DNA from: a virus
DNA: 57,665 nt
Virus record (IMG/VR): IMGVR_UViG_3300042482_000462
Span: 1-57,665 of that record
Strand: one strand, 5' to 3'
The first letter of the stretch is position 1. Every line of letters starts with the position of its first letter. Positions 31,456-46,473 of the stretch are shown one piece after another. The position numbers were made by a program, and so were the translations under genes. The notes under the pieces were generated by a model. It worked only from the letters and a program-made list of their open reading frames with translations, made no database searches and was not told the DNA's origin.

Positions 31456-34400
31456 ATGCCAACACTTCAAGAACTGCGCACCAGCATTCCAGAGCTTACC
31501 GGCCTGGACGACAGCACCGCCGTCGAGTACATCCGGCGCATTCACTACCCTGACCGGACAGCCGCAGAAATCGGCTCACGGCTGGGCGTGAAGCCGGCTG
31601 CGCCTTCCGTGAAGCCGCGCAGTATCCCGGCCGCCGTCAACGACACGGTGATCGACTTCAGCAACGCCGTTGCCGGTGGTGTCGCGTCCATCGGCAACTT
31701 TGTGTCGCCCGGCAACCGGGTTTCCAAGTTCATTCAGGACGACATCATCCAGGCTGGCCGGGCAAACCAGTCCGATGCCACCCAGGCAGAAGATGCCCGC
31801 TACGGCCAGGAAATGGAAGCCGCGCAGGGCATTGGCGACGAGGTTGCATCGACGCTTGGCTACGTGGCGCGCAATCCAATCCGGTCGCTGGCCACCGCCG
31901 CAGGTTCGTTCGTCGGCCCTGCTGCCGGCGTCAAGGCCGCACAGTTGGCTGCGCGCGGTGTCGGCGTGTCTGCTGGCGGCGTTGGTGCTGCGCGTGCAGG
32001 CATGGCCGGTGGTGCGTTGACCGGTGCAGCCCTGGCCGGTGGTGACGCTGGCGGAACGGCTTACGACCTGGTGATAAAGGCGGGCGGCACGCCTGAGCAG
32101 GCCACAGAAGCGGCCCGCAACGCATCCGTGATCCCGGCTGCCGTTGGTGGCGTGGGCGGCATGGTTGGTGCCGAACGTCTGCTGGCTGGCGCCAAAGGCT
32201 TCAGCGGCGGCAGGTTGGCGCAGATCGGCAAGACAGCAGCCGTGGAAGGCGGGCAAGAGTTCATTGAGGAAGGCGTCACCCAGTACGAAGGCCGGCGCGC
32301 TGCGATGCCGTATGACCCAACCATCGACCCCATGAAGGGTGTGGCAGGCGCCGCAACGATGGGCGCTGTGTTGGGTGCTGCTACAGGTGGTGCGATGGCA
32401 GCGCTGAAGCCGCAGGTTCCAGAGCTTGGCCCGTTGAGCCGTGCGGCAAACATCGCACCAGACACAACGCCAGAACCGCCGCCGCCACCCGTACCGCTGA
32501 CGCCAGAGCAGGACGCAACGCTCAAGGCCCACGCCAACGCCCGCAACGCCGAGTTGACCGAAAAGGCCAAGGGCACCAAGGACGTGAAAACGCCAGAGGG
32601 CACGATCCCTGGCAAGCAGCCCGAGTTTCTGACGCCTGCAGAGAAGGAAGAACAGGCATTCCTGCAGCAGAACGGCGGCGACACTCAGGCGCTGGCCAAG
32701 GCTTACCCTGGACTGACCGCAGAGCAAGAGCAGCGGGCGCTCGCCAACATTCAAGACTTCGCCAACGAAGGCCAGGACCGGATGCGCACGTTCGCGCCCG
32801 CGCCGCAGCCGGCCCCGCCGCGCCAGCCGGCAACGGTCATCAGGGCAGAGCCTGAGCCGCGCCCACAGCCGCCGTCATTCGAGCCTGACCTGACCACACC
32901 GGCAGCGATCTATGAATCGCTGAACGAGATCGAGCAGCGCAACGACCAGACGCGCCGCATGTATGCGCAGCAGCCAGGTGACCGGCTGAACAAGCAAGGA
33001 AAGCCGTTCAGCAACAAGGCCGCGGCGAAGATCGACCAGAAGAAGGCCGGCGACGGGTTTGCGATTGTTCCAGCCGACAATGGTTTTGTGGTGCGTCCGG
33101 TGGTGGGCGTATCTGCGGAAATTCCGCAGATGGACGCAGACCTGCCGACGCTGAAGAAAGCATGGAGCGACGCCGCAGCGGCCGGGCGCACCGAAGACGC
33201 CAAGGTCATCAACGACCGCATCCTGGCACTGAAGGCTCCAAAAAATGCACCAGAACGGCAAGCACCAGCCCAAGCCGAAGGAACTCAAGCGCCAGCGCCG
33301 GCAGCAGTTGCAGGAGCGGCAGCACCAGAAGCCGATTTTTCCGCAACCGGACAGCCTGCCGTTCAAGCGGGAGGGGTAGATCAGAAAGCGCGCTGGTTGA
33401 AGAACGTCGCCGACAGCAACAGACTGGCAGGCCCCACGGGCGCGCAGATCACCGGTATCGAGAACGGTCGGCTCAACTATGCAGGCGACCCGCGCACAAG
33501 CAAGCAGGGCAAGTCTCTGATAGCCAGCGTGGACGAGGCGCTCAAGGCTGGCGCCACGCTTGCGGAGATTGCGCAGGCAGCGGCACCCAAGCCTACTTCC
33601 ACCAATGCCGCGGCCCCGAAAGTACAACCCCCCGCGCAAGTCGCCGGGGATCGGGTAGCCGCGGCGCCACGTCAAGGACAGGTTGGCGACAAGTTTGCGG
33701 CCGGCGAGGTGGCGCTGACGGCCAGCGGGCGAACCACAACGCCATTTCCAAAGGTCGCGCTGGACACAAATCGCAAGGCAGCGGCCACCATCAAGGCCGT
33801 TGACCAGTGGCTGATGTCGAACGCGCTGGCTGAGGCCGAGTCGCGTGGTGACGATTTCAACGCCAGACAGTTTCGAGCGAATCAGACCAAGCCGCAGCAG
33901 GCAGACAAGGACAGCGCCGAGGAATACCTTTTTGGCGATCAGCCGCGCGTGCTGCCGTCCATTACCAGGCCGCTGATTTCAACCGCTGCCGCCCCACCCC
34001 CACAAGCACAACCCGCTGCCACAGCAGTGGCCCGCCCAAACCGCCGCACCAAGGCCGTGGAAGCCAAGGCAAAAGAGGCAGAGTCCAAGCGCGCGGACTA
34101 CTTCAGCCCAGGAAACATCGTCAAGAGCTTTGGCGGCCACGACGAGGTTTTGTCCTACACGCCCACCGCTGGTGGCGGGTTCACCGTCAAGGTGCATGAG
34201 GTCAAGAAGAACGACCAAGGCGAGTGGGTTCGACTTGGCAAACCGCAGGACGCCCGCCAGCACGCCACCAACCCCGATGCACGCGAACTGGCAGCCGGCC
34301 CCGTTGCAAGGCTGAACCCGCAGCCGGGCGCCGAGGTTAAGTACAGCGAGCCACGGGCAGATGGGGCGCCGTTCCAAAACGCCCCAGGCCGTGGCAGGGC

Positions 34401-37400
34401 ACCAGTACAGGACCAGGCCAATCCCGCTGCACCAGAGCCCGCACCCAAGACGCTGAAAGAGCGCCGGGAGCAGGCCAAGGCAACGCCAGGACGCAACGGC
34501 CCGAACGTCATCATCAACCGCCTGGGCCCGGATGGGCTGACCGACGCCGAGCGCGCGGCAGGCAAGAAGCCGTACAACGACCCGCCAGCGCCACCTGCTG
34601 ACGACAAGACAGTCAAGAGTTTGTTTGGAAACGCCCCTCTCAAGGGAGCATCCGGCAAGATGGATACTCTGGGTGGCTTCTCTGCCGGCGACCGCGTGAA
34701 GGTCAGTGGCCGCACCATCGGCGACTCGACCGTCGAGTTCCTGTTTACGCGCGACATGGCAGGGTTCAGTGAGCCAGGCCAGATGGCGCAAATTGTGAAT
34801 GCCGACGGCAAAAGGCTTCAGGTGCTCACGTCTGAGTTGCAGCGCATCGACGCCGCGCCCGACCTGCAGACCAGCGTGGCAGTGCGGGAACTGGCTGCAC
34901 GCGCAGCGGCATTGCAGACCCCACCGGCCGCGGCACCGGCCCCGAGCGCCAACACCGTCTTCACCGAAGACGCCGCCGCAGCCGCCCGTGCCCGCCTGAA
35001 GGCCAAGCTGGGCCGCCTGAGTTCCGGCATCGACCCCGAGACGATGATGGACGGCATCACGCTGGCCGGCTACCACGTCGAGAAGGGCGCCCGCACGTTT
35101 GCCGCCTACGCCCGCGCGATGGTCGACGACCTGGGCGATGCGGTGAAGCCGTACCTTCAATCCTGGTACATGGCCTTGCGCGCCGACCCGAAGGCAGCCG
35201 CTTTCAAGGCCGACATGGACAAGGCCAGCGCCATTGAAGATCTGACGCCCCCCCAGATTGAAGCGCTGCTGGCGCCAAATGACGCCAACCAGACGGCTCA
35301 AAAAGCGCAGAATGAGGCGCCAAAGGAGAACCCAGATGATTCCCCCACTTCAGGATCTGCGCCTGCGGTCAATCAGCCGCTGGCTCAAAGACCAGAGCCC
35401 AGCACTGCCCGCCGCGGTGCTCAACAGCCGCGCAAGCGAGCTGGACGAGCAGATGATCGAGTCGTTCGAGGAACGGGAGGACTCGTTGAAAGCGCAGCGG
35501 ATGAAGGAGCGCCGCTGGGGGACGGAGGAAAGCCTGACACGGTTCCCGCTGGAGCGGATGGAACTGTGGCAGGAGGTGTGCAGCGAGTTCCTACCCGTGA
35601 CTTCCGACCAGCCGCAGGAGACCTGAAGCGCGAGGGTTCGTGGTTTGCCACGGCTGCACGCAACATTGACCTGATTGAACTGGCTCTGCGCATCCAGGCC
35701 GAAAAGCGAGTGGCCACGCCGCAGGAACAGGCTCAACTTGCGAAGTACGTGGGCTTTGGCGCCAGCGAGATCAGGAACAACCTGTTCCCGGTGCCGTCGC
35801 AGTGGGCCCGCCAGCAAGACCCCAAGCGCCTGATCTGGCCAGACTTGGTGCGTGAAGCGCGCTGGAAGCCGCTGGCCGAGCGCATGGCCGCGTTGCCAGA
35901 AGAGTGGCAGCGTTCGGTGCTTCAGTCAACGCAGTATGCCCACTACACCAGCGAAGGCGTGATCCGTTCCGTGTGGAGCGGCCTGCAGCGCCTGGGCTTT
36001 ACCGGCGGCAAGGTGCTGGAGCCAGGCATGGGCATCGGCAGCTTCAACATGCTGATGCCAGACACGGTGCACGCCACCAGCCGTTACACCGGTGTGGAGT
36101 TCGACGGACCGACCGCGCTGATTGCGCAGATGCTGTCTCCCGACCAGAACATGCTGCACGAGGACTTCATCAAGCGGAAGTTCCCGCGTGACTTCTTCGA
36201 CCTGGCGGTAGGCAACCCGCCTTTCTCGCAGACCAAGATTCTTGGCGACCCGGACTACGAAAAGTTTGGGTTCATGCTTCACGACTTCTTCTTTGCCAAG
36301 AGCCTGGATCGCGTGCGGCCAGGTGGCCTGCTGGTGTTTGTCACCAGCAAGGGCACGATGGACAAGCAAAGCGACAAGGCCCGGAAGTATCTGGCCGAGC
36401 GCGCCGACTTGCTGGGCGCCATCCGGCTGCCGTCTACCGCCTTTGAGGACAACGCCGGCACCAGCGTTGTCACCGACGTTCTGTTCCTGCGCAAGCGCGC
36501 CCCTGGCCAGGAGCCGGCAGGCCCGGCGTGGACCGGCGTGCAAACCATCGACACCAAGGATGGCCCCGTCGTAGTGAACGAGTATTTTGCGGCGAACCCC
36601 GGTATGGTGCTGGGCGAGCAGCGCATCAACGGCAACGTGGACGACTTCGGCCGGCGCATCAACAGCAATGGCATGGGCGGCGCCAAGTACACGGTGGTGA
36701 GCTACGACTCCACGCCTGAGCAACTGGACGAGCGTTTTGCCAAAGCCATCGAAAGCCTGCCAGAAAACGTGTATTCGCCCCTGAGCGCCAACAGCGAGCA
36801 GGTGAAGCGCGAAACGGCCAAGGTGGACTTTGACCCGTCGATCAAGCGCGAGGGTGTTGTGTACCTTGGCGCCGACGGCAAGCTGCGCCGCGTGCAGAGC
36901 GGTGTTGGCGTGGCCCTGGCCGATGGCATGAAGTTGTCGGCCAAAGACGAAGCCTGGTTCAAGGGGTACGTGGGTGTGCGCGACATGGTGCAGGCCGCAC
37001 GGCTTGCCCAGGTGCAGGACGGCGATTGGGAGAAGGCGCTGAAGGCGCTAAACAAGGCTTACGACGCATTCCGCAAAGAACACGGCCCAATCAACGACTT
37101 CCGCACGCAGACCCGCCGCGGCACCGACGAAGAAGGCAACGAGGTCACGACCGAGATCCGCATCTTCAAGAACCGGCGCCTGTTCCGCGAAGACTACGAC
37201 AGCGCCGTCATGACGCAACTGGAGGTCATCAACGAAACCGGCGAGATCATCAAAGCCCCGTTCCTGCTTGGCCGCACCATCGGCAAGCCTGTGGTGCGCG
37301 AGGTCAAGACCGTGGGTGACGCGCTGGCCGTGTCGTTGGATGAAACCGGTCGGCTGGACCTGGACGACATTGCGCGCCGCATGAGCTTGAGGCGCGACGA

Positions 37401-40400
37401 AGTGGTCGACGCGCTGGGCACTCAGATCTACAAGGCCCCTGGCGGCCAGTGGCAACTGTCGGACGAGTACCTGTCCGGTGACGTGGTGGCCAAACTTGAG
37501 GAAGCCGAGCTTGCCGCGCGCCTTGACCCAAGCCTCGCGCGCAACGTGCAAGCTCTGAAGGAAGTTCAACCCGAGAAACTTGGCCCGTCGCAAATCAGCG
37601 TGAAGGCCGGCGCATCATGGGTTCCTGCGGAGTACGTCAATGACTTTGCCAAGGAAATCGGCGCAGGCGCTGTGACGTTCGATTCCAAGACCGAATCTTG
37701 GCAAGTCCAGGGCGGCAACGAGCGCAGCGCGCGCCGGGCTGGCGCTGAGTACGGCACCGCCGATCGTTCGCCTTCGGAGTTGCTGGAGTCTGTGCTGAAC
37801 AGCCAGAGCATCACGATCAAGCGCACCGATGCCGACAAGAAGGTTTACACCGACGCGGCGGCAACCACGGCGGCCAACGAAATGGCACGCAAGATCAAGG
37901 AGAAGTTCAAGGGGTGGGTGTGGACTGACGCCGACCGCGCAAGCAACCTGGTGGAGATCTACAACAAGCGCTTCAACAACATCGCGCCGCGCCGTTTCGA
38001 CGGCTCGCACATGACGCTGCCTGGGGTGAGCCTGCGGTTTAGCCTGCATCCGCACCAGAAGCGCGCGATCTGGCGCCAGGTGCAGACCGGCGACACCTAC
38101 CTTGCGCACGCGGTGGGCGCCGGCAAGACCATCGAAATGATTGCCGGCGGCATGGAGCAAAAGCGCCTTGGGCTCATCAGCAAGCCCATGTACGCCGTGC
38201 CAAACCACATGCTGGAGCAGTTCGCCAACGAGTTCATGGAGCTCTACCCGCTGGCCAACATCATGGTGGCCGACGACGAAAACTTCTCAGCCGAGCGCCG
38301 CAAGGCTTTTGTGGCCGCCGCCACCTTGAACGCCCCTGACGCCATTGTCATCACTCACAGCGCGTTTGAGCGCATTGGTGTGAAGGAGGAAACCGTCGCT
38401 CCCATCCGCGATGAGATTCTGGACGACCTTCAAACCGAACTGGAGGACAGCGACAAAGGCGACCGCGTGCGCCGGGCGCAGCTGCAGCAGCAGATCGAGG
38501 CTGTGGAACAGCGGTTTGACAGCATCGTCGGTGCCGGCAAGAAGGACTCGACCATCAAGTTCGAGGACATCGGCGCCGATTTTGTCTACGTGGATGAGGC
38601 CCACGCTTTCCGCAAGCTGGACTTCACGACGAACCAGAAGATCAAGGGCATTGACCCCAACGGGTCACGCAGGGCCCTGGATATGTACGTCAAGACCCGC
38701 TACCTGGGCCGCAAGAAGCCAGGTCGCGCAATGGTGTTTGCGTCTGGCACGCCGGTGACCAACACCATGGGCGAGCTTTACACCATCATGCGGTTCTTCT
38801 CACCCCAAGAGTTGAGCCGGGGTGGCATTGCAACCTTCGACGCTTGGGCGCGGCAGTTCGGCGAGGCAGTGCCTGCACTGGAAGCCAACGCCGCCGGCCG
38901 GTACGAGGTAGTGGAGCGCTTCGCCAAGTTTGACAACGTGCCCGAACTGATGTCACGAGTGCGGCAGTTCATGGACGTGCTGACGTCGGAACACCTGGGC
39001 GCCTTGGTCAAGCGGCCAGACATTGAGGGCGGCAAGCCTGACCTTATCACGGTAGATCCTACCGAGGCCCTGAAGAAGTACATGAAGGGCGTGCTTCTGC
39101 CGCGCCTGGAGCAGTCGCGCAAGTGGAAGCCGACGAAAGATCAGCCGTTCAACCCCGACCCCGTGATCGCCATCACCAGTGACGGCCGTTTTGCCGCGCT
39201 GGACCCGCGTTTTGTTGGGGAAAAGATCGACGAGAACGCAACCCCGACCAAGCTCACGCGCATGGCCGACGAGGTGGCGCAGATCTACAAGGCCAGCGCT
39301 GGCAACGAATACTTGGACAAGCAGGGCAAGCCAGAGCCTGTCAAGGGCAGCACGCAGATCGTGTTCTACAACCTGGGCTTTGGGGCGCAGTCGATGCAGA
39401 ACCGCGGCTTCGATGCGCGCGGCACTCTGACCAAGCGTCTGGTGGCGCAGGGCGTGAAGCGCGACCACATCCTGTGGTTTGATGATGCGGACACCGACTC
39501 CAAGAAGGAGACGATGTTCAAGGCCATGCGCAATGGCCAGGCCCGTGTGCTGATTGGCAGCGCCAAGAAGATGGGCACTGGTGTGAACGTGCAGAAACGC
39601 CTGCTGGCTCTGCACTACTTCGACCCGCCCTGGTATCCCAGCGACGTGGAGCAGCCGCACGGCCGCATCATCCGCCAGGGCAACCAAAACACACTGGCCA
39701 CCATCAAGTGGTACGCCACCAAGGGCACCTACGACAGCACCATGTGGCAGATGGTGGCACGCAAGCAGCGCTTTATCGACCAAGCGTTCAGCGGCGACAA
39801 GTCGCTGCGCACGATGGAGGACATGAGCGAAGCCAGCATGTTCGAGCAGGCCGCCGCGGTGGCCAGCGGAGACCCGAGGGCTTTGCAGTTGGCCGGGTTG
39901 CGCCAAGACGTGGAGCGACTGGAACGGCTGCAGGCGGCGCACGCCAGCGAGCAGATTGCACTGCGCAGCGGCCTGCGCAGTGCCGAGTGGAACATTGAGA
40001 GCTACGCCAAGCGGGTGAAGACCTACGGCGACGCATTCAAGGCCATCGGCGGCGGGTACTACAGCTTCAGCAGTGCAACGGTTGGCGGCAAGACATTCGA
40101 CAAGGTAGGTGAGTTCGGCCAGGCGCTGAAGGATGCTTTCAACCAGAAGGCCGCCGATGCAGTCATGGAACCGGGCACCAAGACGCGCGCCCTTGCCACG
40201 CTGCCATCTGGCATCACAGTCCGCATGGAGGCCAACGAAGACCGCGAAGGCAAGCCAACCGGCGAACATGAACTGGTGCTGCGTGCCGGGTCCGTCGACA
40301 TTCAGTTGACCGGCTACGCTGCCGCGCTGGGCGAGAAGGTTGACGCCGTGGGCCTTGGCCGGCGCGTCATCAACGCCGTCAACGGCATCGAGGCAGACTT

Positions 40401-43400
40401 GAACCGCGCCAAGTCGTCGCTGGCCAACGAGGAAACCGACGCGACGCGGCTGCGCAAGAAACTGGGCGCGCCTTTTGAGTATCAACAAGAACTGGCCGAG
40501 AAGATCGGCGACCTGAAGCGCCTGGAAGAAGAACTTCGCGCCGAAGGAGAGGCAGAAGCCCGCGCCGCGGCGGCAGAGGTGGTGATTGACGCCACGGGCG
40601 CCAGTGAAGCAGGACAGCCGCGCGCCGACGGCGCCGCGCAGTTCAGCCGCGCCACCGGCCAGTCCACCACCCCCGCCCAGCTTCGCACCGCCCTTGAAAC
40701 CGAGTTCAGCCCTGAAACCATCGGCGCCCTTGAGCGCGCTGGCCTGCTGACCATTGGCGACCGCCCGACCGCTGGCATGCCTTCAGACGCAGCTGGTGTG
40801 AGCCAGGGCGGCAGGATTGGCCTGTTCGCCGGCAACACCCGGCCGGGCTCGACAGCCGTCGCGTACCACGAAGCCCTTCACGCCACGCTCAAGACCAGCA
40901 TCGGCGAGCAGACCTACGCTGCGCTGCTGGACCGCCTGGCGGCCATCGACAGCAAGGCCATGGCCGGTGGGGCTACGCAGAAGTTCTTTGCCCAGGCGCG
41001 GGGTCGCATCCCTGCCGACCTGACGGGCACTGAGCGGCTGGAAGAACTTGCCGCGTACTCGGTCGAGGCCGTGCAAGCCGAACGCGAAGGCACGCCGCTG
41101 GCCATCAAGCGCTGGGTGAGCGACTTCCTGGCAGCGCTGCGCGCGGGGCTTTCCAAGGCACTGCAAGCGGCAGGTGTGGGCCTGCGCATCCGGGCGCGGC
41201 TGCTGGCCGACCCGGCAACGCTGCGGAAGATCGCGCGCGACGGGCTGCAGGCAATGGCAAGGCAGGGGATGCAGGGCGATGCTGCAATGGCGTTCAGCCA
41301 GCCAGCAGCCGGCCCGAAGTGGTACAGCGCACTGAAGCAGTCCATCGCAGGCCTGAGCATGGGCGCAGCGCCGGCCCAGGGTTGGAAGGACAGTATCAAG
41401 GGGCTGGTGGCCAAGGGCGCCGTGAAAGCTGATGAAATCGAATGGACCGGCATCAACGAGTTCTTGGACCTGCAGCAAGGCAAGGTCACCAAGGCCCAAG
41501 TGATGGCATTCATGGATGCCAACGGGGTGCAGGTAACCGAGACGGTGCTGTCTGACGAAGTAGCGCGTTCGCTGCCCGCTGGTTGGCAGGTTCTGCGCGG
41601 CTACGACGACACGTTCACTGTTTCTGATGGCGACGGCAACATCATGGGAGAGGGCGAAACGGCGGCAGAAGCCGTGGCCAACGCGCAAGACGAAGACGCA
41701 GCGGCGGACACGCCGTCAATGACCAAGTACGGCCGGTACACCCTGCCTGGCGGCACCAACTACCGCGAGGTGCTGCTGACGCTGCCCACCAAGTCGTCGG
41801 GAAAGTATTGGGCCGAAGACGTAGGCACTGTTCCCGGGGTCCAGAACTGGATGGTCGCATCAACGCGCGAATCAGATGGGGAAACCGTGTATCGCGGCAA
41901 GAGCCACGGTTCACGCCAATCAGCAGAGCGAGCCATTGCGGAACTTGAAGGCGCGAAGAACTACAAGTCCAGCCACTGGGACCAGCCCAACGTCCTGGCC
42001 CACATCCGCCTGAACGACCGCACGGATGCAGACGGCAACCGGGTGCTGTTTGTGGAAGAGGCCCAATCCGACTGGGGCCAGGATGGCAAGAAGAAGGGGT
42101 TTGCCAACCCTTCAATGAAGCCGCTCACCAACAAGGAGTACCAGGCCTATCTCGACGGCCTGGTGGATGAGTACGCAGACAAGTTTGCCAAAGAGGCTGG
42201 CAGCCGTAGGGATGCTGAACGCAACGCCATCAACATGCCTATGCGTGCACTCGCTGAGGCACTTGGCAAGGCCGACGAGCTCGCCACCATGAGGGCTCGC
42301 CGACAAATGGACATTGATGGCGTGGCCGCCGTCCCGCTTGCCCCATTCGTTGGCGCCACCGACAAGTGGCTCACACTGGCCCTGAAGCGCGTCATCAAGA
42401 TGGCCGTCGATGGCAGCTACGACAAGGTGGCCTTTGTCACGGGCGAGCAAAGCGCGGATCGGTATGACCTGAGCAAGCAGGTGGACTCCATCCGCATCAC
42501 ACGAGTGGGCGCCGATGAGTTTGATGTGGCCGCCGCCGTGAAGGGTGGCGGGCGGGGCATCAGCGAAACCGGCCTGTCACTTGCACGGCTTGAAGAAACT
42601 GTCGGCAAGGAGTTGGCAAAGCGCGGCGCTGCATTGCCCGAGGGCGTCGGCGAAACCTACACCGACACGGACCTGAAAGTCGGCGGCGAAGGCATGAAAG
42701 CCTTCTATGACCAGATCGTCCCTGCCGCTACCAAGGCCCTGCTGAAGAAGCTGGGCGGCGGGCAGATGGAGGCTGTACCAATCGCGGCAGTTGAACAAGG
42801 GTTGCGAGTCAAGCCGGTTGACAGCCCGTTTGGCAAATTTGTTCTTGTCGATGGAAGCGGCAAAGAAGTAGGACTATTTGAAACGGAAGCCGAGGCAAAG
42901 GCTTACATTCGCCAAGCGGCGAAGCCGCAGCCCGGATTCGCCATCACCCCCCAGATGCGCGAGAAGGCCAGCGGTGGAATGCCGCTGTTCAGCCGCACCG
43001 ACCAGACCGCCACCGAAGCATTCAAGCGCTGGTTGTCAGCGTCATTGGCATTCGACGGCCGGCCGGATGCCTTTGCGGCGGAACATGGCGGCGACAGCTT
43101 GGCGAGTGACGCCGCATTCGTGCGCAATTTCTTTGATACGCGAACCGTTCAAGAATTTGGACTTGGCGGCTTCGACATCCCAAGTCGGCGCGTTGTGATG
43201 CGTCGAGTGCTCGGAGTGCTTGAAGATTTCAAGATTCGCCAATCTGTTGTCCAACTTATCCCCGTTGATGTGGTGAACATCCTCGGAGCGAAGCAGCTTA
43301 CGCCCAAGATGCTTTTCAACGACATGGCGATGCTCACGGATTTGCTTGCCGGCAACCGTAATGATTCGATACCCCTTGCGGTCGATGAAACCGCAAAGGT

Positions 43401-46400
43401 TGCTGACGCTGTAGCAGCGGTGACTGCAGAACATCTTGCCGCGAACCCCAAGCTCGGAAGATCGTCTGGTAACGACGGTGCCGCATTGGGCGCAGGGCAT
43501 CGTGATGCTGCCGCCCTTCGCCAAAGCGGAGCAGGCGTGCTTGCAGTAGACATTCCCGCTGGGCGAAACGGCAGACGGGAACCGGAGAACGGGCGTGGAG
43601 CACTGAGCGCAAGAGTAGAGACTTTTCATGACAGGCAACGCATTAAACATGCGATAGCCTACAACGCAGAGTCCGGCACGTCAACAATAAAGACGTTCAA
43701 CCCCGCAAGCCCTGACATCAGATTTAGCCGCACCATGGGCGAGACTCTGCGCGAGGCCGTGCCATCCGCCGCACAAGAGTGGATTGCCGACCGCGCCACC
43801 TCACAGCGCGGGTTCAACCGCCCGTGGCACCGCACCGTGGGCACCCAACTGCACAAGGCCAAGATCAACAAGGACTTCGGCCGGGTGTACTACGCTGCCC
43901 AGGACTTCATGAAGGACGTAAGCCGGATTGCCACCCTGGCATCCGACCGCGCGCCCGACATGCTTCCCCAGATCGAAACCCTGTCTGACATGGCAAAGTT
44001 GGCGCCGAGCCTGGCAAGCCCCGCAGCCTACAAGCAGCGTAAGGCCGACATCAAGGGTGCGAGTGATGCGCTGTTTGACGGCACGCTGCGCTACACCCGA
44101 AACGACGACGGCGAAGCTGTGGCCGTGGATCCTGACAGCAATGAACTGGGCGGGCTGGTGTGGACAGACGCCGAACTGCGCGACCGTGGCATGAGCGAGC
44201 GGGCCATCAAGATGTACCGGCAAAGCCGTGAGGCCATCGACCAGAGCCTGGACAGTATGCTGGCGGCAGACCTGTTCCGCCAAGCCGGTGTACTGAAGCC
44301 TGAAATGCTGGCCGACACCCCGAGCGCGCACCAGGCGCTGCTGGACGGCATGCGCAAGGCCGCTGCGTCCGACAACCCAGCGCAGGTCGGGCAGATGCTG
44401 CGCGAGGCCATTCGCGGACAACTTGAATCGTTGGGCACGGCCCTGGAAGGTCAGCCCAACCAGTACACAGACGGCCTGAAGCAGCGCCAGCAGGAACTGC
44501 GCGACCTGCAGGTGGCCATTGGCGAGAAGATCGAGCGCATCGGTTCGCTGAAGGCATCCGGCTACGCTCCGTTGATGCGTTTCGGACCTTACGCCGTGGA
44601 CGTGATCGACGCTGACGGACAGCGCATTTTCTTTGGCCTGTACGAGGGCCAGGCCGCCGCCAACCAGGCCGCGCGCAACTTCCGTGGCCAAGGACTGCAG
44701 GTCAGCCAAAGCGTGATGCCGCAAAGCGACTTTGAAGCGCTGAAGGGTGTCAGCCCTGAAACGGCCATGCTGTTTGCTGAAATGCTGGGCGTGGAGAAGA
44801 ACGAGGCCATGCAGACGTGGTTGAAGAACGCGGTGGCCGAGCAGTCGGCCCTGAAGCGCCACATCCGCCGCAAGGGCATTGAAGGGTTTGACGAGGACGG
44901 CAGCCGCGTGCTGGCCGCTTTTGTGACCAGCAACGCCCGCGCCGCATCGCGCGCCCTGCACGCTACCCGCATGGCTGACGCTGTGGAGAACGTGCGCCAG
45001 GGTGACGTGAAGGACGAGGCCCGCGCGCTGGTTGAGTACATCAACAACCCCAAGGAAGAAGCGCAGGCCATCCGTTCGCTGCTGTTCGTGCAGTACATCG
45101 GCGGCAGCGTGGCGTCAGCGCTGGTGAACCTGACCCAGACCCTGGTGCAGACGCTGCCCTACCTGAGCCAGTACGGCGGGGCTGTGAAAGCCGGGCAGCG
45201 CCTTTCCGGGGCTATGAAACTGGCCCTGGCCGACAAGATCACAGACACGGAACTGTCCGACGCTGTGAAGCGCGCCGAGAAGGATGGCGTCATCAAGCCG
45301 CAGGAAGTTTTCCAGCTGCAGGCCGAGGCCAGCCGCAGCCTGGGGTCCAACCTGTACGTGCGATCACTGCTTTCGGCCTGGGGATCAATGTTCCAGATGG
45401 CCGAGGTGTTCAACCGCCGCGTGGCCTTCATCGGCGCCTACAACACCGCCAAGGAACAGGGGATTGCGGACCCGTTCGCTTTCGCGGAAAACGCGGTGGA
45501 TGAAACGCAGTCCGTGTTCAACAAGGGCAACCGGCCAAACTGGAGCCGCGGCGCCGTGGGTGCCACCTTGTTCACCTTCAAGACCTTCACCATCCAGTAC
45601 GTGGAATTCCTGAAGCGCCTTTCGACCGCTGGCGAGCCTGGCTCACCTGAGCGCAAGCAGGGTCAGCGCGCCGCTGCCGTGGCGCTGATGATGCTGATGA
45701 TCCTGTCGGGCATGAAAGGCATTCCGTTTGCTGATGATGCAGAGGATTTGGTTGACACCGTGGCGCAGGCCCTGGGCTACAACTGGGTGACCGATGCGCA
45801 GCGCGACCGCTGGCTGGACAAGATGCTGGGCGAAACCATGTCAGACATCGTGCAGCATGGCCTGAGCGGCGTGCCCGGTGTGCCGTTCGACGTGTCGCAG
45901 CGCCTTGGCATGGCAAACCTGCTGCCCGGCACCGGGCTGCTGAAGCAGTCGGAAACCAACAAGCAGAACCAGGTGCTGGAAGTATTTGGCGTGGCCGGGT
46001 CAGCGGTAAAGGATGCCACCCAAGGCCAGGTGCTTCCGTTGGCCATCCGCAACCTGATGAAAGGCCTGGACACCTACCAGACCGGCATGTACCGCGACAG
46101 CAGGGGGCGCAACGTGGTTGAGTCTGACGGCTTGGGCGCGGCATTGAAGGCCATAGGCCTGCAGCCTTCGCGGGTGGCCAGCGCCCAACGCGACATTGGC
46201 CGGCAGATCGAGGAACGCAACCTGTACAGTGCGGTGAAGGAAGAAATCACCGACGCCATGGCGCAAGCCCGCTTCGACAAAGACGCAAACGCCGCCAAAC
46301 AGGCTGCTGCTGCGCTGAATAAGTGGAACGACACCAACCCCGAGGCGCCCATCATCATCAAGTCCCACACCATTCAGGCCCGCGTGCGGCAGATGATGCG

Positions 46401-46473
46401 CAGCAAGGCAGAGCGCACCATTGCCAACGCGCCCCGGCCGCTGCGGGCCGCCACGGCAGAGGCCTTGCAGTGA
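31456..46473 (+). CDS. giant polyvalent virion protein, 5005 residues
   Basis: A single frame of 15,018 bp. Visible order: Gly-zipper hydrophobic segments (about 150-318); disordered Pro/Ala region; polyvalent-associated domain 'GIDPETMMDGITLAGYHVEK' (about 1180-1270); N6-adenine methylase with SAM motif 'EPGMGIGSF' (1522-1530) and NPPF (1587-1590); SF2/SNF2-type helicase with GAGKT (2221-2225), DEAH (2380-2383), SGTPVTNT (2430-2437) and 'QPHGRIIRQGNQN' (2733-2745); zincin HEALH (3138-3142); further polyvalent modules separated by FSR/FSQ tags; and a helical C-terminus with a hydrophobic patch. The methylase-helicase pair resembles P1 DarB, an injected antirestriction protein. Probably packaged and ejected, protecting DNA on entry. 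Confidence 0.85.
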   Translation: MPTLQELRTSIPELTGLDDSTAVEYIRRIHYPDRTAAEIGSRLGVKPAAPSVKPRSIPAAVNDTVIDFSNAVAGGVASIGNFVSPGNRVSKFIQDDIIQAGRANQSDATQAEDARYGQEMEAAQGIGDEVASTLGYVARNPIRSLATAAGSFVGPAAGVKAAQLAARGVGVSAGGVGAARAGMAGGALTGAALAGGDAGGTAYDLVIKAGGTPEQATEAARNASVIPAAVGGVGGMVGAERLLAGAKGFSGGRLAQIGKTAAVEGGQEFIEEGVTQYEGRRAAMPYDPTIDPMKGVAGAATMGAVLGAATGGAMAALKPQVPELGPLSRAANIAPDTTPEPPPPPVPLTPEQDATLKAHANARNAELTEKAKGTKDVKTPEGTIPGKQPEFLTPAEKEEQAFLQQNGGDTQALAKAYPGLTAEQEQRALANIQDFANEGQDRMRTFAPAPQPAPPRQPATVIRAEPEPRPQPPSFEPDLTTPAAIYESLNEIEQRNDQTRRMYAQQPGDRLNKQGKPFSNKAAAKIDQKKAGDGFAIVPADNGFVVRPVVGVSAEIPQMDADLPTLKKAWSDAAAAGRTEDAKVINDRILALKAPKNAPERQAPAQAEGTQAPAPAAVAGAAAPEADFSATGQPAVQAGGVDQKARWLKNVADSNRLAGPTGAQITGIENGRLNYAGDPRTSKQGKSLIASVDEALKAGATLAEIAQAAAPKPTSTNAAAPKVQPPAQVAGDRVAAAPRQGQVGDKFAAGEVALTASGRTTTPFPKVALDTNRKAAATIKAVDQWLMSNALAEAESRGDDFNARQFRANQTKPQQADKDSAEEYLFGDQPRVLPSITRPLISTAAAPPPQAQPAATAVARPNRRTKAVEAKAKEAESKRADYFSPGNIVKSFGGHDEVLSYTPTAGGGFTVKVHEVKKNDQGEWVRLGKPQDARQHATNPDARELAAGPVARLNPQPGAEVKYSEPRADGAPFQNAPGRGRAPVQDQANPAAPEPAPKTLKERREQAKATPGRNGPNVIINRLGPDGLTDAERAAGKKPYNDPPAPPADDKTVKSLFGNAPLKGASGKMDTLGGFSAGDRVKVSGRTIGDSTVEFLFTRDMAGFSEPGQMAQIVNADGKRLQVLTSELQRIDAAPDLQTSVAVRELAARAAALQTPPAAAPAPSANTVFTEDAAAAARARLKAKLGRLSSGIDPETMMDGITLAGYHVEKGARTFAAYARAMVDDLGDAVKPYLQSWYMALRADPKAAAFKADMDKASAIEDLTPPQIEALLAPNDANQTAQKAQNEAPKENPDDSPTSGSAPAVNQPLAQRPEPSTARRGAQQPRKRAGRADDRVVRGTGGLVESAADEGAPLGDGGKPDTVPAGADGTVAGGVQRVPTRDFRPAAGDLKREGSWFATAARNIDLIELALRIQAEKRVATPQEQAQLAKYVGFGASEIRNNLFPVPSQWARQQDPKRLIWPDLVREARWKPLAERMAALPEEWQRSVLQSTQYAHYTSEGVIRSVWSGLQRLGFTGGKVLEPGMGIGSFNMLMPDTVHATSRYTGVEFDGPTALIAQMLSPDQNMLHEDFIKRKFPRDFFDLAVGNPPFSQTKILGDPDYEKFGFMLHDFFFAKSLDRVRPGGLLVFVTSKGTMDKQSDKARKYLAERADLLGAIRLPSTAFEDNAGTSVVTDVLFLRKRAPGQEPAGPAWTGVQTIDTKDGPVVVNEYFAANPGMVLGEQRINGNVDDFGRRINSNGMGGAKYTVVSYDSTPEQLDERFAKAIESLPENVYSPLSANSEQVKRETAKVDFDPSIKREGVVYLGADGKLRRVQSGVGVALADGMKLSAKDEAWFKGYVGVRDMVQAARLAQVQDGDWEKALKALNKAYDAFRKEHGPINDFRTQTRRGTDEEGNEVTTEIRIFKNRRLFREDYDSAVMTQLEVINETGEIIKAPFLLGRTIGKPVVREVKTVGDALAVSLDETGRLDLDDIARRMSLRRDEVVDALGTQIYKAPGGQWQLSDEYLSGDVVAKLEEAELAARLDPSLARNVQALKEVQPEKLGPSQISVKAGASWVPAEYVNDFAKEIGAGAVTFDSKTESWQVQGGNERSARRAGAEYGTADRSPSELLESVLNSQSITIKRTDADKKVYTDAAATTAANEMARKIKEKFKGWVWTDADRASNLVEIYNKRFNNIAPRRFDGSHMTLPGVSLRFSLHPHQKRAIWRQVQTGDTYLAHAVGAGKTIEMIAGGMEQKRLGLISKPMYAVPNHMLEQFANEFMELYPLANIMVADDENFSAERRKAFVAAATLNAPDAIVITHSAFERIGVKEETVAPIRDEILDDLQTELEDSDKGDRVRRAQLQQQIEAVEQRFDSIVGAGKKDSTIKFEDIGADFVYVDEAHAFRKLDFTTNQKIKGIDPNGSRRALDMYVKTRYLGRKKPGRAMVFASGTPVTNTMGELYTIMRFFSPQELSRGGIATFDAWARQFGEAVPALEANAAGRYEVVERFAKFDNVPELMSRVRQFMDVLTSEHLGALVKRPDIEGGKPDLITVDPTEALKKYMKGVLLPRLEQSRKWKPTKDQPFNPDPVIAITSDGRFAALDPRFVGEKIDENATPTKLTRMADEVAQIYKASAGNEYLDKQGKPEPVKGSTQIVFYNLGFGAQSMQNRGFDARGTLTKRLVAQGVKRDHILWFDDADTDSKKETMFKAMRNGQARVLIGSAKKMGTGVNVQKRLLALHYFDPPWYPSDVEQPHGRIIRQGNQNTLATIKWYATKGTYDSTMWQMVARKQRFIDQAFSGDKSLRTMEDMSEASMFEQAAAVASGDPRALQLAGLRQDVERLERLQAAHASEQIALRSGLRSAEWNIESYAKRVKTYGDAFKAIGGGYYSFSSATVGGKTFDKVGEFGQALKDAFNQKAADAVMEPGTKTRALATLPSGITVRMEANEDREGKPTGEHELVLRAGSVDIQLTGYAAALGEKVDAVGLGRRVINAVNGIEADLNRAKSSLANEETDATRLRKKLGAPFEYQQELAEKIGDLKRLEEELRAEGEAEARAAAAEVVIDATGASEAGQPRADGAAQFSRATGQSTTPAQLRTALETEFSPETIGALERAGLLTIGDRPTAGMPSDAAGVSQGGRIGLFAGNTRPGSTAVAYHEALHATLKTSIGEQTYAALLDRLAAIDSKAMAGGATQKFFAQARGRIPADLTGTERLEELAAYSVEAVQAEREGTPLAIKRWVSDFLAALRAGLSKALQAAGVGLRIRARLLADPATLRKIARDGLQAMARQGMQGDAAMAFSQPAAGPKWYSALKQSIAGLSMGAAPAQGWKDSIKGLVAKGAVKADEIEWTGINEFLDLQQGKVTKAQVMAFMDANGVQVTETVLSDEVARSLPAGWQVLRGYDDTFTVSDGDGNIMGEGETAAEAVANAQDEDAAADTPSMTKYGRYTLPGGTNYREVLLTLPTKSSGKYWAEDVGTVPGVQNWMVASTRESDGETVYRGKSHGSRQSAERAIAELEGAKNYKSSHWDQPNVLAHIRLNDRTDADGNRVLFVEEAQSDWGQDGKKKGFANPSMKPLTNKEYQAYLDGLVDEYADKFAKEAGSRRDAERNAINMPMRALAEALGKADELATMRARRQMDIDGVAAVPLAPFVGATDKWLTLALKRVIKMAVDGSYDKVAFVTGEQSADRYDLSKQVDSIRITRVGADEFDVAAAVKGGGRGISETGLSLARLEETVGKELAKRGAALPEGVGETYTDTDLKVGGEGMKAFYDQIVPAATKALLKKLGGGQMEAVPIAAVEQGLRVKPVDSPFGKFVLVDGSGKEVGLFETEAEAKAYIRQAAKPQPGFAITPQMREKASGGMPLFSRTDQTATEAFKRWLSASLAFDGRPDAFAAEHGGDSLASDAAFVRNFFDTRTVQEFGLGGFDIPSRRVVMRRVLGVLEDFKIRQSVVQLIPVDVVNILGAKQLTPKMLFNDMAMLTDLLAGNRNDSIPLAVDETAKVADAVAAVTAEHLAANPKLGRSSGNDGAALGAGHRDAAALRQSGAGVLAVDIPAGRNGRREPENGRGALSARVETFHDRQRIKHAIAYNAESGTSTIKTFNPASPDIRFSRTMGETLREAVPSAAQEWIADRATSQRGFNRPWHRTVGTQLHKAKINKDFGRVYYAAQDFMKDVSRIATLASDRAPDMLPQIETLSDMAKLAPSLASPAAYKQRKADIKGASDALFDGTLRYTRNDDGEAVAVDPDSNELGGLVWTDAELRDRGMSERAIKMYRQSREAIDQSLDSMLAADLFRQAGVLKPEMLADTPSAHQALLDGMRKAAASDNPAQVGQMLREAIRGQLESLGTALEGQPNQYTDGLKQRQQELRDLQVAIGEKIERIGSLKASGYAPLMRFGPYAVDVIDADGQRIFFGLYEGQAAANQAARNFRGQGLQVSQSVMPQSDFEALKGVSPETAMLFAEMLGVEKNEAMQTWLKNAVAEQSALKRHIRRKGIEGFDEDGSRVLAAFVTSNARAASRALHATRMADAVENVRQGDVKDEARALVEYINNPKEEAQAIRSLLFVQYIGGSVASALVNLTQTLVQTLPYLSQYGGAVKAGQRLSGAMKLALADKITDTELSDAVKRAEKDGVIKPQEVFQLQAEASRSLGSNLYVRSLLSAWGSMFQMAEVFNRRVAFIGAYNTAKEQGIADPFAFAENAVDETQSVFNKGNRPNWSRGAVGATLFTFKTFTIQYVEFLKRLSTAGEPGSPERKQGQRAAAVALMMLMILSGMKGIPFADDAEDLVDTVAQALGYNWVTDAQRDRWLDKMLGETMSDIVQHGLSGVPGVPFDVSQRLGMANLLPGTGLLKQSETNKQNQVLEVFGVAGSAVKDATQGQVLPLAIRNLMKGLDTYQTGMYRDSRGRNVVESDGLGAALKAIGLQPSRVASAQRDIGRQIEERNLYSAVKEEITDAMAQARFDKDANAAKQAAAALNKWNDTNPEAPIIIKSHTIQARVRQMMRSKAERTIANAPRPLRAATAEALQ
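35336..35626 (+). CDS. 96-residue gene overprinted in the giant gene
   Basis: ATG 35336, in the +1 frame relative to the giant gene, has AAAGGAG (35322-35328) 7 bp upstream, a near-ideal ribosome-binding site. Its product is balanced and helical, with 'SRASELDEQMIESFEERED' and 'GTEESLTRFPLERMELWQEV'. The giant protein's own sequence over the same DNA (residues about 1294-1390) is low-complexity Arg/Pro/Gly/Ala. That contrast suggests the small frame is the constrained one. The function is unknown. It lies exactly between the polyvalent and methylase-helicase modules. Confidence 0.6.
   Translation: MIPPLQDLRLRSISRWLKDQSPALPAAVLNSRASELDEQMIESFEEREDSLKAQRMKERRWGTEESLTRFPLERMELWQEVCSEFLPVTSDQPQET
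43042..43650 (-). CDS. HNH homing endonuclease antisense within the giant gene
   Basis: 202 residues from ATG 43650 (AGG 7 bp upstream) or 195 from ATG 43629. Two zinc-ribbon Cys sets ('CAQCSTPV' ... 'CKHAC' and 'CAQCGTVV' ... 'CSHRC') are followed by the HNH_3-type core 'EHRHVVEKHLGRKLLRSEDV' and 'HHINGDKLDNRLANLEIFKH'. A C-terminal helix-turn-helix with 'EIAHECGVTRQAVAAMFRRK' would read the target. Homing endonucleases spread by cutting uninterrupted alleles. Its codons align with those of the giant frame, which stays open through it. Confidence 0.85.
   Translation of the reverse strand: MFNALPVMKSLYSCAQCSTPVLRFPSAVSPSGNVYCKHACSALAKGGSITMPCAQCGTVVTRRSSELGVRGKMFCSHRCYSVSNLCGFIDRKGYRIITVAGKQIREHRHVVEKHLGRKLLRSEDVHHINGDKLDNRLANLEIFKHSEHSTHHNAPTWDVEAAKSKFLNGSRIKEIAHECGVTRQAVAAMFRRKGIRPAVECQ

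What the first reader, a model, noticed from the sequence alone, without database searches (positions are those of the whole stretch)
35336..35626. A small gene overprinted in a second frame of the giant gene
A near-perfect ribosome-binding site and balanced helical product on one frame; low-complexity residue use on the giant frame. Suggests that two genes (polyvalent part and methylase-helicase part) became fused across a pre-existing small gene, which is still read. Such overlapping genes are rarely annotated.
Basis: partly seen in the sequence, partly recalled or inferred. Interest (0 to 1): 0.82.

Follow-up and report, generated by a model that had tools for sequence, protein, structure and literature searches.

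The report
Hidden gene nested in antirestriction giant
A small, never-annotated helical protein is encoded in a second reading frame inside the giant DNA-methylase/helicase (DarB-like) gene of this phage, and the same nested gene turns up at the same spot in almost every related phage checked, so it is a real, old and widespread gene, probably a partner of the antirestriction protein that surrounds it.

Summary
ORF 35336-35626 (96 aa, +1 frame, AAAGGAGA ribosome site) lies wholly inside the 5005-aa DarB-like ORF 31456-46473. ORF length alone is not significant; conservation is. Seven relatives encode it at about 49-56% identity without stops. In an unbiased survey of 78 methylase-bearing phage loci, 77 have an ATG ORF in the +1 frame just before the methylase, only 5 in +2. 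An iterative profile started from three window-type sequences recovers the small ORF in 87 of 93 loci, no decoy better than E=0.4. Substitutions inside the overlap fall mostly on giant codon position 1 (small position 3), but on giant position 3 in nearly all flanks. The giant frame stays open in 48/48 representative lineages against 5 expected. Both frames are maintained; the small one carries the amino-acid constraint, the giant one is a low-complexity linker. AlphaFold gives a confident three-helix protein (pLDDT 93.7) with no solved counterpart. Most likely role (inferred): a dedicated partner, escort or packaging factor of the DarB-like methylase-helicase, working like but unrelated to P1 Ulx.

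The parts
35336..35626 (+). nested small gene, 96 aa, +1 frame, acidic (pI 4.7), three-helix protein
35322..35330 (+). ribosome-binding site AAAGGAGAA, 5 nt before the ATG
31456..46473 (+). giant DarB-like/PLxRFG polyvalent ORF, 5005 aa, that contains the small gene
35335..35626 (+). giant-frame linker overprinted on the small gene: low complexity, kept free of stops but with little amino-acid constraint
35608..36798 (+). N6-adenine methylase module of the giant frame (Pfam Eco57I/N6_Mtase), starting at the end of the small gene
38728..38853 (+). SNF2-related helicase match in the giant frame

Best explanation
35336-35626 is a genuine protein-coding gene nested out of frame in the giant DarB-like antirestriction gene. 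It is translated by internal initiation at its own ATG and Shine-Dalgarno site on the message of the giant (inferred from sequence). Its product is an about 100-aa acidic helical protein of one family, found at the same place in nearly all giant DarB-like genes surveyed. The giant frame passes through it as an unstructured linker in front of the methylase. Because it is made from the same message and sits next to the methylase-helicase module, the protein most likely acts as a dedicated partner of that module (inferred): it binds the linker or the methylase and escorts it, or keeps it competent, for packaging into the head and action on incoming DNA, as P1 does with separate small proteins (Ulx, DdrA, Hdf). 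That it is a real conserved gene: about 0.95. That its role is partner or escort of the DarB-like module: about 0.5.
For: Nested +1 ORF in 85 of 93 loci that encode the TnpV-like branch, never +2, and in 77 of 78 loci chosen only by their methylase. One family by iterative profile with decoys. Start and SD: 83 of 87 ATG as picked by the script; SD energy <= -5 in 66 of 87 against 15% of control ATGs; most Lessievirus copies have GAAGGAGGT 8 nt before the ATG. Codon-position constraint switches frame inside the overlap in all six clades compared. Giant frame open 48/48 against 5.1 expected; T-ending codons before AA/AG/GA codons 0/1547 against 242/3377 elsewhere. AF2 pLDDT 93.7 for the window protein. 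Partner role: co-occurrence with the methylase module; the giant is in virions of JC1, where no Ulx/Hdf/DdrA/DdrB homologue was found (PMC9144972); P1 Ulx is listed as aiding DarB localisation (PMC9024508).
Against: No translation or protein evidence here. Some copies have a weak SD (L002 -3.5, L023 about 0). The partner role is argued from position and analogy only; no sequence relation to Ulx, whose gene lies downstream of darB. P1 DarB itself, a Microvirga plasmid homologue (L011) and L186 lack the nested gene, so a methylase-helicase can do without it. The openness test used loci kept because they are nested (8 of 93 were dropped), and pairs are not phylogenetically independent.
Confidence: 0.55

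Rival explanations
1. The small frame is the tail of a programmed frameshift product: ribosomes reading the giant slip and end at the small stop, making 'upstream module + small domain'.
For: In PBC5 the upstream module is in the small frame and runs into it (orf33, 2185 aa); PHROG 938, whose profile is as long as orf33, ends with this domain.
Against: In-frame stops lie 2-5 codons before the ATG in L010, L012, L013, L015 and L020-L022, leaving almost no room to slip; ATG and SD are conserved; standalone genes of the family start at the same point.
Confidence: 0.04
2. Chance ORF in a GC-rich gene.
For: ORF length alone is not unusual.
Against:: conservation, frame-specific constraint and one protein family across more than 80 loci.
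Confidence: 0.01
3. The giant is not one protein: upstream module, small gene and methylase-helicase are expressed separately and the open giant frame is incidental.
For: The giant frame over the overlap has almost no amino-acid constraint.
Against: The giant frame is stop-free in 48/48 lineages where 5 are expected. The giant is detected in JC1 virions with 51 unique peptides (PMC9144972), although that does not prove continuity across the linker.
Confidence: 0.07
4. The small protein is an effector in its own right that touches the host's restriction system (antirestriction, or inhibitor/regulator of N6-adenine methylases), not an escort for packaging.
For: Standalone relatives sit beside type I R-M (L113), McrBC/hsdM (L110) and XRE-type regulators (L097, L204); small acidic protein.
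Against: Few standalone examples, with no control for how common such neighbours are; no binding data; no fold match.
Confidence: 0.25
5. A homing endonuclease insertion like the ShiLan element, hidden out of frame in a phage methylase gene.
For: Same geometry: stop-free in the host frame, real protein in the other (PMC11855218).
Against: No HNH match; near-universal presence at one site rather than sporadic; predicted fold is three helices.
Confidence: 0.01

Closest known systems
Out-of-frame nested phage genes (lambda Rz1 in Rz, phiX174 E in D; own knowledge) and the ShiLan hidden HNH (PMC11855218)
   Same: A complete small gene inside a larger gene in another frame with its own start
   Different: Nested in the linker of a giant antirestriction polyprotein, conserved at one site across many phage genera, and not a lysis or homing gene
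P1 Ulx / DdrA / Hdf (helpers of DarB packaging)
   Same: Small proteins tied to a DarB methylase-helicase; proposed same job
   Different: No sequence relation to Ulx; ulx is a separate 146-aa gene downstream of darB; DdrA and Hdf were not compared
Pfam TnpV (PF14198)
   Same: 11 of 47 family members match at E<=0.01, best 2.5e-7
   Different: The window protein itself does not match; TnpV is named as a transposon-encoded protein
DarB-like polyvalent proteins (Iyer et al. 2017, PMC5512222; Lessievirus DarB-like giants)
   Same: The surrounding giant gene is one
   Different: The second-frame gene did not turn up in a term search of that paper, nor is it annotated as a gene of its own in the phage records read

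Membership tests
out-of-frame nested gene | complete ORF inside another gene, other frame | tested here: met
out-of-frame nested gene | own start and ribosome-binding site | tested here: met
out-of-frame nested gene | selection on the nested frame while the host frame stays open | tested here: met
out-of-frame nested gene | translation shown | not testable with these tools
   needs ribosome profiling or mass spectrometry
TnpV (PF14198) | match of the window protein at the curated cut-off (27 bits) | tested here: not met
   no match for the window protein; relatives L012/L013 score 20.7 and 18 bits
TnpV (PF14198) | sequence continuity with TnpV-matching relatives | tested here: met
   iterative profile from window-type sequences reaches L012, L013, L015, L016
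P1 Ulx | sequence homology | tested here: not met
   no significant profile match
P1 Ulx | separate gene immediately downstream of darB | tested here: not met
P1 Ulx | aids DarB localisation to the head | not testable with these tools
   experiment needed
ShiLan-type hidden HNH insertion | HNH endonuclease in the second frame | tested here: not met
   no HNH match

The most novel reading that the evidence does not exclude
A near-universal hidden partner gene: giant DarB-like antirestriction genes across tailed phages carry, overprinted in the linker before the methylase, a small helical protein that licenses the methylase-helicase for packaging and injection, or controls it. TnpV-like standalone proteins in bacterial genomes would be its cellular relatives, acting with type I R-M methylases.
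Probability: 0.3. Interest if true: 0.9.

Novelty: new variant of a known kind. Interest (0 to 1): 0.82.

Why it matters
Overlapping genes are rarely annotated, and this one is missing as a gene of its own from all the phage records read here, including Burkholderia, Klebsiella, Erwinia and Pseudomonas phages. It adds a conserved protein to the antirestriction module of many phages and offers a candidate for the P1-type helper proteins not found in Lessieviruses (PMC9144972). It is also a clean natural case where a multi-domain fusion seems to keep an older gene inside its linker, and existing virion mass-spectrometry data could test it at once.

Tried and rejected
Exact-peptide scans of IMG/VR and genome contigs with the single window protein found nothing, as did tblastn in phages; relatives came through one plasmid hit and through the methylase. 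Direct profile comparison of two window-type sequences with the TnpV-like set gave no signal until intermediates were found. Ulx by position or sequence rejected. Frameshift product judged unlikely. Homing insertion rejected. PDB sequence and fold searches gave nothing above what a helical bundle gives by chance; BFVD neither. Burkholderiales genome samples: no true window-type copy (one E=9e-4 match with two stops), three TnpV-type copies. LASTA-type copies in plasmids: none. Near DNA match of the window to phages: none. Literature searches found no report of this nested gene; many subscription papers are not in the library.

Full report
What is there. The window is an IMG/VR virus record. 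Its 5005-aa ORF 31456-46473 is a DarB-like/PLxRFG polyvalent gene with an N6-adenine methylase and an SNF2-type helicase. The small ORF 35336-35626 lies entirely inside it in the +1 frame, with AAAGGAGAA 5 nt before the ATG. By length alone it is not remarkable: 49 of 300 synonymous shuffles of the giant have a comparable +1 ORF there.

Conservation. A tblastn hit in a Massilia plasmid (59% identity) lies in the same frame of a 5555-aa giant. Homology of the two giants starts at aa 1290, where the small gene starts (aa 1293); upstream they differ, apart from a weak match at the extreme N-terminus. A third sequence came from IMG/VR. Relatives found through the methylase showed an ATG ORF of about 90-130 aa at the same place and in the same frame in Lessievirus, Lastavirus, Pavtokvirus, Ittyvirus, Roslyckyvirus and Namazuvirus, and in Vibrio, Microcystis and Pseudoalteromonas phages. 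A scan with the TnpV-like branch gave 93 loci, 85 of them nested in +1 and none in +2. A scan by methylase alone gave 77 of 78 loci with a +1 ORF of at least 60 aa, against 5 of 78 with a +2 ORF; in a few of the 77 the longest +1 ORF picked there was a different one (e.g. L141), and the true one was found by profile.

One family. Starting from the window, Massilia and L119 proteins only, iterative hmmsearch on 140 candidate ORFs, 3357 other-frame or other-place ORFs and 1400 shuffled sequences converged on 87 of 93 loci at E<=1e-3, best decoy 0.4. The common pattern is an N-terminal helix, a near-invariant proline and an invariant leucine, and a C-terminal AWE....LEF motif. Eleven of 47 members match Pfam TnpV, the window not.

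Selection. In every clade compared, substitutions inside the overlap are most frequent at giant position 1 (= small position 3). In the downstream giant-only flank they are most frequent at giant position 3; upstream flanks follow the same pattern except in one poorly aligned wide set. Over 693 pairs mean identity is 0.60 in the small frame, 0.447 in the giant frame and 0.459 in the third frame, so the giant amino acids there are hardly constrained. Yet the giant frame is open in 48 of 48 representatives, where recoding the small protein with each phage's codon use predicts 5.1; the third frame is open in none. These sequences had been kept because they are nested, but only 8 of 93 were dropped for not being so, two of them cut by contig ends. 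Hence both frames are maintained.

Expression. 83 of 87 start codons as picked are ATG; the three GTG picks (L002, L119, L123) are script artefacts, since the conserved MIPP start lies a few codons upstream. SD energy is <= -5 kcal/mol in 66 of 87, against 15% of control ATGs. In several phages an in-frame stop lies 2-5 codons before the ATG, which speaks for internal initiation and against frameshifting. Translation itself is inferred.

Structure. AlphaFold2 with 44 family sequences gives a three-helix protein (pLDDT 93.7, pTM 0.82); a TnpV-like member is also all-helical but less certain (81.6). No solved or viral model matches convincingly.

Function. Inferred only. P1 uses small virion proteins with DarB; Ulx is listed as aiding DarB localisation (PMC9024508), and in Thermus Lalka phages a Ulx homologue follows the DarB-like gene (PMC11437467). 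For Lessieviruses no homologues of DdrA, DdrB, Hdf or Ulx were found, while their giant is in the virion (PMC9144972). The nested gene is unrelated in sequence to Ulx but is a natural candidate for a similar job. Standalone copies beside type I R-M (L113), McrBC/hsdM (L110) and XRE-type regulators (L097, L204) make a more direct role in restriction possible.

Origin. P1 DarB, whose methylase begins near its N-terminus, has no such ORF.

Noticed in passing
L017 (Sinorhizobium phage PBC5) 4733-5309: The upstream module is in the frame of the small gene and runs into it (orf33, 2185 aa, same length as the PHROG 938 'endolysin' profile); a single-base indel, real or a sequencing error, would explain it.
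   Followed up: partly
L113 4884-5306, L110 4974-5762, L097 5001-5300, L204 1429-1737: Standalone copies of the family in bacterial genomes, beside type I R-M, McrBC/hsdM or XRE-type regulators; in L110 extended by a probable membrane part.
   Followed up: partly
L004 5213-5530: The +1 ORF before the methylase region resembles DUF3848 weakly (E 0.016), perhaps a further branch of the same kind.
   Followed up: no
window 33162-33803: A 213-aa ATG ORF in the +2 frame of the giant with weak hits in relatives that mostly contain stops; probably a shadow of the giant frame.
   Followed up: partly
L165 5431-7302 and L173 5005-7302: DarB-like genes with short N-terminal parts still carry the nested gene.
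   Followed up: partly
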